NCBI GenBank assembly: GCA_020091685.1
Contig: CM034607.1
Location: 9,235,465-9,299,464 of the forward strand
DNA from: Lutjanus erythropterus
Lineage: Eukaryota; Chordata; Actinopteri; Lutjaniformes; Lutjanidae
Reading direction: 5' to 3'
DNA: 64,000 nucleotides
The position numbers and the translations under genes are program-made. The notes under the pieces were generated by a model. That model worked only from the letters and a program-made list of their open reading frames with translations, was not told where the DNA came from and ran no database searches. Of this stretch, positions 15,703 to 18,787 are shown piece after piece (within the stretch, counting starts at the first letter, position 1; every line of letters begins with the position of its first letter).

Positions 15703-16441
15703 TAGGGGTGGGCGATATGGCAAAAATATCATATCACGATTTTTTTATTAGAAAATCACGATTTCGATTTTATCACGATCTTACATGTATTTATATTATG
15801 TATTATGCTATGTATTTAGATTTACATTTACTGTTTTTACTTTACTTTCTACTTTTTTTCAAGCACAAAGGTAAAAGTAAAGGTAGTAATGTCTGCAGAA
15901 ACCACAAACAGAAGATGTTACTAACTCTTTTAACTGAAACAGTCACCAGAATGTTTTGTTAACATGTTAAAATCACAACATTTTTCTTCTGGAGCAGGAC
16001 AGACGCTCCCAGACCCCCAACAGGGGACTGGTTTACCAACATGCCACCTTTTTCTCCTCTTACGAGTTTGCAGGTCTGTATTTAAGCTTGGTAAAGTTGG
16101 AAAGATATTCACAGATTCGGACTTCTGGCATCAATAACTCATTAGTGATACGTTGTCAAAACATAAATGCAGGCCTCTTCCCATCGTTGTAAGGTAGACA
16201 ATGTGCTACAAGCCCAGTTTTATCAAAAGTAGCTGTCTTTCAAGCTGCAGAAATAAAATTGGTGTCTATGAGCAGCCGGCTGTGAGACGTGGATAGGGAC
16301 CGTCTGCAAATTGCAAAACCGCCAGCAGCGAAGAGAAACACTACACAGATATTCAATAACTTCACTTAGACAATGTAGTGTCACCAAAATCACTGCAGCC
16401 TTCAACTGGCTCCTGTTGATCATACTACAATACTTGTTTTA

Positions 16442-16632
16442 TAATATATATATGTATATACACACATATATATATATATATATATATATATATATATATA
16501 TATATATATATATATATATATATATATATATATATATATATATATATGTATATATATATATATATATATATATATATATATATATATATATATGTATATT
16601 ATTATTATTATTATTATTACATATTATTATTA
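16442..16632. repeat. (TA)n microsatellite followed by (ATT)n
   Basis: About 150 bases of almost pure TA, interrupted by TATGTATA steps and a CACACA patch, then an ATT run to ~16632. It lies just inside the left foldback arm. The 162-codon frame through it (Tyr-Ile repeats) is an artefact. Confidence 0.95.
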
Positions 16633-16961
16633 TTTATTTTATTTTTTTGAGAAACTTTATAATAAAATGCAATAACTTCACCTTTATGCACTGTAAAGAA
16701 TTAAACTCTGTCCAATTCATCAACTGGTTTCCTGCTGATCATACTACAACACTTGGTTTGATTTTTTCTTTCATAATTTTAAGGAATTTTTATTTGTAAT
16801 AAAATTTATAACTTCACTTTAGTATGTAGAATAGCCACTAAATATCAGAAAGATCAACTGGATGCTGCTACAACTCTCTTGGTTTGATATAAAAAAAAAC
16901 AACAACAACATCATTAAAGAATTTATATTAATAAAATTCAATAACTTCACTTTTTTTAATA

Positions 16962-18180
16962 TCAAACCAAGTGTTGTAGTATGATCAGCAGGAGCCAGTT
17001 GATGGTTGGACAGAGTTTAATTCTTCTACAGTATGTAAAAGAAGTTATTGAATTTTATTATTAATAAAAACCTACAGTACATAAGAGTGGAGTTATTAAA
17101 TTTTATTACAAATAAAAATTTTAAAATTAAAAAAATTAACATCAAACCAAGAGTTGTAGTATGATCAGCAGCATCCAGTTGATGGCTGCAGTAAATTTGG
17201 TGACACTACAGTGCATAAAAGAGAAGTTATTAAATTTATTATTAATAAAAATCTTAAAATTATGAAAAAATGTTTTTAATATCAAACCAAGAGTTGTAGA
17301 TGATCAGCAGCATCCAGTTGATGGCTGCAGTAAATTTGGTGACACTACAGTGCATAAAAGAAGTTGTTAAATTTTATTATTAATAGAAAATCTTAAAATT
17401 ATGAAAAAATGTTTTTAATATCAAACCAAGAGTTGTAGTATGATCAGCAGCATCCAGTTGATGGCTGCAGTGATTTTGGTGACACTACAGTGCATAAAGA
17501 GAAGTTATTAAATTTTATTATTAATAGAAAATCTTAAAATTATGAAAAATGTTTTTAATATCAAACCAAGAGTTGTAGATCAGCAGCATCCAGTTGATGG
17601 CTGCAGTGATTTTGGTGACACTACAGTATAAAAGAGAAGTTATTAAATTGTATTATTAATAAAATTCTTAAAATTATGAAAAATGTTTTTAATATCAAAC
17701 CAAGAGTTGTAGTATGATCAGCAGCATCCAGTTGATGGCTGCAGTGATTTGGTGACACTACAGTGCATAAAAGAGAAGTTATTAAATTGTATTATTAATA
17801 AAAATTCCATAAAATTATGATTTTTTTAAAAATATCAAACCAAGTATTGTAGTATGATCAGCAGCAGCCAGTTGATGGCTGCAGTGATTTTGGTGGCACT
17901 ACAGTACATAAAAGAGAAGTTATTACATTTTATTATTAATAAAAATTCCATAAAATTATGATTTTTAACAAAATATCAAACCAAGTATTGTAGTATGATC
18001 AGCAGCAGCCAGTTGATGGCTGCAGGAATTTGCTTACACTACAGTACATAAAAGAGAAGTTATTAAATTTTATTATTAATAAAAATTTAAAATTATGAAA
18101 AATTTTAATATCAAACCAAGAGTTGTAGTATGATAAGCAGGCCAGTTGAAGGCTGCAGTGATTTTGGTGACACTACATTG
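16962..18180 (+). repeat. ~140-bp tandem array inside the foldback element
   Basis: Nine units begin ATCAAACCAAG at 16962, 17141, 17281, 17420, 17560, 17694, 17834, 17975 and 18110 (spacing 179, then 134-141). Each carries GTTGTAGTATGATCAGCAG, CCAGTTGATGGCTGCAG, TGGTGACACTACAGT, GAAGTTATTAAATTTTATTA and AAAATTATG. The last unit runs into the right arm, so the array is an amplification of the arm's inner end. Related units in reverse orientation occur left of centre (16380-16440, 16670-16760, 16800-16890), giving a symmetry centre near 16900-16950. Confidence 0.9.
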
Positions 18181-18787
18181 TCTAAGAGTGAAGTTGAATT
18201 GAATATCTGTGTAGTGTTTCTCTCTGCTGTAGCGGTTTTGCAATTTGCAGACGGTCCTATCCACTCTCTCACAGCCGGCTGCTCATAGACACCAATTTTA
18301 TTTCTGCAACTTGAAAGACAGCTACTTTTGATAAAACTTGGCTTGTAGCACATTGTCTACCTTACAACTGGGAAAGAGGCCTCGTTTATGTTTTGACAAC
18401 GTATCACTAATGAGTTATTGATGCCGGAAGTCCGAATCTGTGAATATCTTTCCAACTTTACCGAGCTCTGTATTTAGTCATCAAAAAATACCAACAAGAA
18501 TACCATTAAAGTACAACAACAGCAATAAAAATGTTGATTTTTCAAAAAAGGAAACAATAACATGCAAGGTTTTTAAATTGTAATTAAGTAAAAACACTAA
18601 TACCACAATGTAAAAATACCTAAGTAAAGAATCTGAGTATTTTTTCCATCACAGCAGGTCAGTGATCAGTGTTTCAGTGACTCTCTGTGGATCAGTGAAT
18701 AGTGTTTTATTTATGGCGGCCCGCCACATTAAAAACATTGGCACCGCGACATGATTTTCTATTTTTGGAGCTGCGCACCTTTTTCGC

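What the first reader, a model, noticed from the sequence alone, without database searches (positions are those of the whole stretch)
16085..18467. Foldback transposon with 9-bp target duplication nested in an hAT element
Seen directly: ~360-bp inverted arms, terminal AGCT(T/C)GGTAAAGTTGG, and a perfect CTGTATTTA duplication on both sides. The whole lies inside a second element with its own perfect 8-bp duplication (AGTAGCAG). Known: 9-bp duplications are typical of Mutator-like and Drosophila Foldback elements. Inferred: this is a vertebrate foldback family, possibly undescribed, mobilised by an unseen transposase.
Basis: partly seen in the sequence, partly recalled or inferred. Interest (0 to 1): 0.72.

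Follow-up and report, generated by a model that had tools for sequence, protein, structure and literature searches.

The report
Foldback transposon carried by hAT transposons
A hairpin-like jumping element without genes of its own lies inside a larger jumping element; this genome holds dozens of copies, many of which appear to have spread as passengers of two such larger elements.

Summary
Confirmed: 16085-18467 is a mobile foldback element. Its ~360-bp arms are 93% alike, its interior is ~140-bp tandem units in opposite orientations, and it sits in a perfect 9-bp duplication. The genome holds 59 exact and 13 one-mismatch tip copies. Of 46 element loci read, 27 sit at one position in one of two hAT elements (9 in the window's hAT, 18 in another); hAT copies checked at both ends have their own 8-bp duplications (7 of 7; 5 of 5, one with a mismatch). 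So the composites moved as units. All 8 empty window-type hATs sampled carry a single CTGTATTTA. Of eight other two-ended insertions, six match at 8-9 of 9 bases, one at 7, one at 5. Identical arms at unrelated sites suggest recent movement. A MULE enzyme is not supported: PF10551 finds nothing. Merlin transposase is present, but six loci read lack these tips. No autonomous partner was found. Best reading: a non-autonomous foldback family, absent from the papers searched, moved by an unidentified 9-bp-duplicating transposase and also amplified as hAT cargo.

The parts
15695..15702 (.). Left 8-bp target duplication of the outer hAT (AGTAGCAG)
   Evidence: Sequence; other copies have their own 8-mers
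15703..19534 (+). Outer hAT (TAGGGGTGGGCGATAT...GCACACCCCTA) carrying the foldback
   Evidence: 7 of 7 two-ended group-1 copies have own 8-bp TSD; copies without the foldback
16076..16084 (.). Left 9-bp target duplication CTGTATTTA
   Evidence: single copy in 8 of 8 sampled empty hATs
16085..16440 (+). Left foldback arm: unique tip (~266 bp) followed by part of a first 140-bp unit
16351..16953 (-). Left set of ~140-bp units (inverted orientation), interrupted by a (TA)n run at 16440-16599
16956..18195 (+). Right array of ~140-bp tandem units
18113..18467 (-). Right foldback arm (tip 18201-18467)
18468..18476 (.). Right 9-bp target duplication CTGTATTTA
19535..19542 (.). Right 8-bp target duplication of the outer hAT
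   Evidence: Sequence

Best explanation
A non-autonomous foldback DNA transposon. Its ends (AGTTCGGTAAAGTTGG...) are recognised in trans by a cut-and-paste transposase that makes a 9-bp staggered cut (shown: 9-bp duplications and empty sites; inferred: the enzyme). The 140-bp units inside change number quickly, probably by unequal exchange or slippage in the palindrome (inferred from copies 230 to 4114 bp long, the longest including an inserted hAT of about 1 kb). One insertion into each of two different hAT elements created composites that hAT transposase then copied around the genome with the foldback as cargo (shown: same insertion point within each group, separate 8-bp duplications for each composite checked). 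So the family spreads in two ways: by its own unknown transposase and as hAT passenger.
For: Copies. Shared tips and flanks. Anatomy. hAT-borne composites. Empty site of host 1 in 8 of 8 sampled hATs. Empty site of host 2 (single TCTTTGTCT), inside the foldback copy of L012. Two-ended insertions elsewhere (8): 9/9 at L013, L029, L037; 8/9 at L018, L034, L056; 7/9 at L015; 5/9 at L035. The 56 arms that span nearly the whole tip (shorter ones dropped) average 97.1% pairwise identity; one arm each at unrelated sites L015, L018, L022, L029, L033, L035 equals the consensus. Group-1 arms form one clade, 13 of 13, support 0.82.
Against: No transposase with matching ends found. In host 2 the two 9-mers differ at 2 of 9, at L015 at 2 of 9, at L035 at 4 of 9, although at least one arm of each is nearly unchanged; gene conversion between arms could explain this but was not tested. 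11 of the 19 other insertions have only one end read or assembled, so their TSDs are unknown. Group-2 arms do not form a clade, so one insertion with conversion and several insertions at one point cannot be told apart by arms alone.
Confidence: 0.85

Rival explanations
1. As to the enzyme: mobilised by a Mutator-like (MULE) transposase, as the first reader proposed and as is usual for foldback elements with 9-bp duplications.
For: 9-bp duplication and long arms are typical of MULEs and of Drosophila FB4 and Tetris (passages of PMC6446971, PMC4079207, PMC8277862).
Against: PF10551 finds nothing in this 938-Mb genome; PMC6446971 (passages) could not confirm a vertebrate MULE transposase.
Confidence: 0.35
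2. As to the enzyme: mobilised by a Merlin (IS1016/IS1595-type) transposase, which (recalled) makes 8- to 9-bp duplications.
For: PF12762 has 7 matches over the cut-off, 6 of them with no stop inside the match.
Against: 6 of the 7 places were fetched (3.0-3.4 kb each): none has GGTAAAGTTGG (one has a lone AGTTCGG 7-mer), and blastn of the arm gives only matches of E 2.9. Ends of these Merlin copies could not be fixed, so the test is incomplete.
Confidence: 0.2
3. As to the enzyme: mobilised by an undescribed or here unsearchable 9-bp-duplicating transposase, such as a Rehavkus/NOF relative or a new lineage.
For: No PF10551 match, Merlin loci without these tips. Rehavkus, per passages of PMC6446971, has 9-bp duplications, inverted repeats of 26-400 bp and a minisatellite before one of them, which resembles this plan.
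Against: Largely negative evidence; the same passages restrict Rehavkus to arthropods and annelids. Rehavkus/NOF could not be searched because no model or sequence was on hand.
Confidence: 0.35
4. Not mobile itself: only a repeat carried by hATs and by segmental duplication.
For: 27 of the 46 loci read are hAT passengers, by one or both flanks.
Against: Insertions in unrelated flanks with 9-bp duplications, and exact empty sites.
Confidence: 0.05

Closest known systems
Tetris, foldback transposon of Drosophila virilis (PMC4079207, passages read)
   Same: Non-autonomous; long inverted repeats of an outer unique domain plus inner tandem units (220 bp there, about 140 bp here); variable unit number; 8-10-bp duplications; no transposase found
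   Different: No sequence comparison was possible; Tetris units share 37 bp with its outer domain, here tip and unit share nothing above shuffles; here copies travel inside hATs; whether the unit forms satellites outside the element did not complete
Drosophila Foldback FB4 (passage of PMC8277862; FB-NOF recalled)
   Same: 9-10-bp duplications, long inverted repeats, unknown transposase
   Different: Other host, no sequence compared; no NOF-like gene could be looked for
Rehavkus (passages of PMC6446971)
   Same: 9-bp duplication, inverted repeats up to 400 bp, a minisatellite next to one inverted repeat
   Different: Autonomous with a PHD-finger transposase, reported from arthropods and annelids; not searched here
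Zebrafish-type non-autonomous 9-bp-duplication repeats of Repbase (recalled, not checked)
   Same: 9-bp duplication, no coding
   Different: Repbase not on hand; identity to any entry unknown

Membership tests
Foldback-type DNA transposon | Long inverted arms making up most of the element, with internal tandem repeats | tested here: met
   (the 230-bp copy L056 has no units)
Foldback-type DNA transposon | Fixed-length target duplication at independent sites | tested here: met
   9 bp: 6 of 8 two-ended insertions outside the two hATs match at 8-9 of 9, one at 7, one at 5; empty sites
Mutator-like (MULE) | MULE-domain transposase with the same ends | tested here: inconclusive
   No PF10551 match in the genome; a partner lost, unassembled or too distant is possible
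Mutator-like (MULE) | 8-11-bp target duplication | tested here: met
   9 bp; shared with other superfamilies
Merlin | Transposase gene bordered by the same tips | tested here: not met
   6 of 7 Merlin places fetched, none with these tips; true Merlin ends not fixed
Rehavkus / FB-NOF | Rehavkus- or NOF-type transposase | not testable with these tools
   No model or sequence on hand
hAT (outer elements) | 8-bp duplication and short inverted tips | tested here: met
   Host 1: 7 of 7 two-ended copies; host 2: 5 of the 18 examined, all with 8-bp duplications, one with 1 mismatch
hAT (outer elements) | hAT transposase | not tested
   Autonomous relatives were not sought
Known repeat-library family | Sequence identity to a library entry | not testable with these tools
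   No repeat library or other fish genome on hand

The most novel reading that the evidence does not exclude
A vertebrate foldback family moved by a transposase of an undescribed lineage that makes 9-bp duplications, in a genome without MULEs, and which multiplies largely by riding inside hAT elements while its palindromic arrays grow and shrink.
Probability: 0.2. Interest if true: 0.7.

Novelty: new member of a known kind. Interest (0 to 1): 0.45.

Why it matters
Foldback elements are known mainly from insects and plants (recalled), and PMC6446971 lists whether MULEs are really absent from vertebrate genomes as an open question (passage). A young foldback family with 9-bp duplications, in a probably fish genome without a detectable MULE domain, makes that question testable: finding its transposase would either give a vertebrate MULE or name another enzyme. 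It is also a clear case of one DNA transposon spreading as cargo of another.

Tried and rejected
Autonomous copy: the widest tip pair (C8:5850070-5862617, 12.5 kb, inside host 2) holds a left arm, about 2 units, then GT-rich minisatellite arrays and about 7 kb of other sequence, and a right tip of about 50 bp. Ten of the 20 ORFs listed for its L055 part were scanned: two matches far below the curated cut-off (E 0.0057 and 0.02) and none for the other eight; ORFs of its L027 part were not scanned. It may be capture, insertion or mis-assembly; not counted as autonomous. Nine further tip places were fetched: in four (L061-L064) the arm runs straight into N, and L059 holds 500 N, so inner parts are missing.

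Secondary tip copies inside the units: none above shuffles. Coding: 10 of the window's 51 listed ORFs, including those at the foldback and next to it, gave no Pfam hit. Rfam: no hit.

Not answered: genome search for the 140-bp unit and for the C8 interior, machine busy; so whether the unit also forms satellites is open.

Paper searches (PMC open library only; listings): searches listed no report of a vertebrate foldback family; most subscription papers are missing from that library. In PMC5638112 and PMC6431247 the one passage each with the word concerns Drosophila.

Full report
What is there. The window interval 16085-18467 has arms of ~360 bp that match as inverted repeats over 335 of 362 columns, bounded by CTGTATTTA on both sides. 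Most of what lies between the unique tips (about 266 bp each) consists of ~140-bp units, oriented one way on the left and the other way on the right, around a short centre, with a (TA)n run. The whole lies in a second element, 15703-19534, whose tips read TAGGGGTGGGCG...GCACACCCCTA, flanked by AGTAGCAG.

Copies. The window lies in an unnamed 938-Mb assembly with 444 contigs. A search with the arm gave 194 matches from 40 scored of 78 candidates, a lower bound. A 20-base tip pattern gave 59 exact places, 13 with one mismatch and 23 with two; the reversed control pattern gave 8 in all, so part of the two-mismatch places is chance. I read 45 loci besides the window, 46 with it: L009-L042 (34 loci; L027 continues into L055) and L056-L066 (11 loci). 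They hold 70 of the 72 exact and one-mismatch tips; the places at C5:92 and C351, and all but one of the two-mismatch places, were not read.

Three kinds of place. (i) Group 1, the window's hAT: window, L009, L010, L011, L012, L014, L038, L041, L066 = 9. (ii) Group 2, another hAT with tips TAGTGCTGTCA...TGACAGCCCTA: L016, L017, L019, L020, L025, L026, L027, L030, L031, L036, L039, L040, L042, L057, L058, L059, L062, L064 = 18. Several of these were placed by one flank only (for instance L017, L038, L059, L062, L064, L066), and L036 has the left flank on both sides. (iii) 19 others: L013, L015, L018, L021-L024, L028, L029, L032-L035, L037, L056, L060, L061, L063, L065. For 18 of these (not L065, at a contig end) the flanks were compared with everything in hand: no match to either host or to one another at E 1e-8, but four had only 95 bp of flank; one 57-bp match of L035 elsewhere in the window. 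L024 has sequence related to the window's hAT on its inner side.

hAT vehicles. For group 1, all 7 copies with both hAT ends in hand have their own perfect 8-bp duplications (AGTAGCAG, AGTTAACG, AATCCACA, GTCTGTAG, AGCCACTG, TATGTATG, CTTCACAT, read by eye from the printed flanks; L049 had one end only). For group 2, 5 of the 18 were extended: four perfect 8-bp duplications, one with a mismatch. Within a group the foldback sits at one position. Flanks are mostly 98-99% identical to the reference copy but range from 92.7% upwards, and the foldback itself differs greatly in length: in group 1, 1227, 2066, 2301, 2383 and 4114 bp (the last with an inserted hAT of about 1 kb), plus a 378-bp remnant in L009. 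The simplest reading is one insertion in each hAT followed by hAT-driven copying, with the unit arrays changing meanwhile.

Nine-base duplication. Eight hAT copies without the foldback were picked from the 40 scored matches of the left hAT part (711 candidates); 8 of 8 read ...GCAGGT-CTGTATTTA-GT... without interruption. One of the eight, L079, shares GTCATC after the site with the 8 of 8 filled copies whose right flank was printed, and ACGAG before it with 4 of the 5 filled copies whose left flank was printed in full (L014 differs), so the insertion probably happened in its subfamily. An empty host 2 happens to lie inside the foldback of L012: it has one TCTTTGTCT where filled copies have TACTTGTCT and TCTTTGTCT. 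Of the 19 other places, 8 have both ends: L013, L029, L037 match 9/9, L018, L034, L056 8/9, L015 7/9, L035 5/9; random pairs reach at least 9, 8, 7 and 5 matches with P about 1.6e-4, 5.4e-4, 3.1e-3 and 0.07. L037's right end and L056's ends were read by eye. L035 does not support the rule.

Age and activity. The 56 arms that span nearly the whole tip average 97.1% pairwise identity (range 86.7 to 100%), and one arm each at unrelated sites L015, L018, L022, L029, L033 and L035 equals the consensus. This suggests recent movement by the element's own route; gene conversion could also homogenise arms. In a FastTree tree group-1 arms form a clade (13 of 13, support 0.82); group-2 arms do not separate from the other insertions.

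The enzyme. No transposase was seen in a foldback copy, but only the window and part of the C8 copy were scanned against Pfam. PF10551 (MULE) gave 0 matches in the genome, with 3 of 14 controls ringing; PF03108 gave 0 with silent controls and says nothing. PF12762 (Merlin/IS1595 DDE) gave 7 matches; the six loci fetched have no GGTAAAGTTGG tip and no arm similarity beyond chance. One of them lies 6 kb from the C8 copy, which I take as coincidence. I leave the enzyme open: MULE 0.35, Merlin 0.2, other (including Rehavkus/NOF-like) 0.35, the rest for no mobility of its own and unlisted options.

What is known. Tetris of Drosophila virilis has the same plan: unique outer domain, tandem inner units, 8-10-bp duplications, no transposase found (passages of PMC4079207). 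FB4 has 9-10-bp duplications (passage of PMC8277862). Rehavkus has 9-bp duplications and a minisatellite by one inverted repeat (passages of PMC6446971). The same paper doubts the reported vertebrate MULEs and leaves the question open. So the kind is known; the family is new only as far as the eight paper searches reach, since no repeat library was available.

Noticed in passing
L036 1-399 and 2691-3090: The foldback in L036 has the left flank of host 2 on both sides, in opposite orientations: a likely rearrangement mediated by the arms.
   Followed up: no
L027 401-5001 and L055: A 12.5-kb tip-to-tip copy filled with GT-rich minisatellite arrays and about 7 kb of other sequence; capture, insertion or mis-assembly.
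   Followed up: partly
L009 401-778; L018 396-1171; L020 4170-4606: Copies that lost most or all of one arm; L009 and L018 keep only the last 13 and 34 bases of the lost end, as expected from deletion within a hairpin.
   Followed up: no
L067 1369-1833 (-) and related loci L068-L072: Merlin-type DDE transposase fragments, with an open frame of 154 aa in L067; at least two Merlin families in this genome.
   Followed up: partly
window 8632-8936 and 27905-28260: Two minisatellites with 27-28-base units, with no evident link to the foldback.
   Followed up: no
L061-L064, L038, L059: Arms that run into or lie next to stretches of N, suggesting that these palindromes break the assembly (or that stretches are withheld), so copy number is underestimated.
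   Followed up: partly
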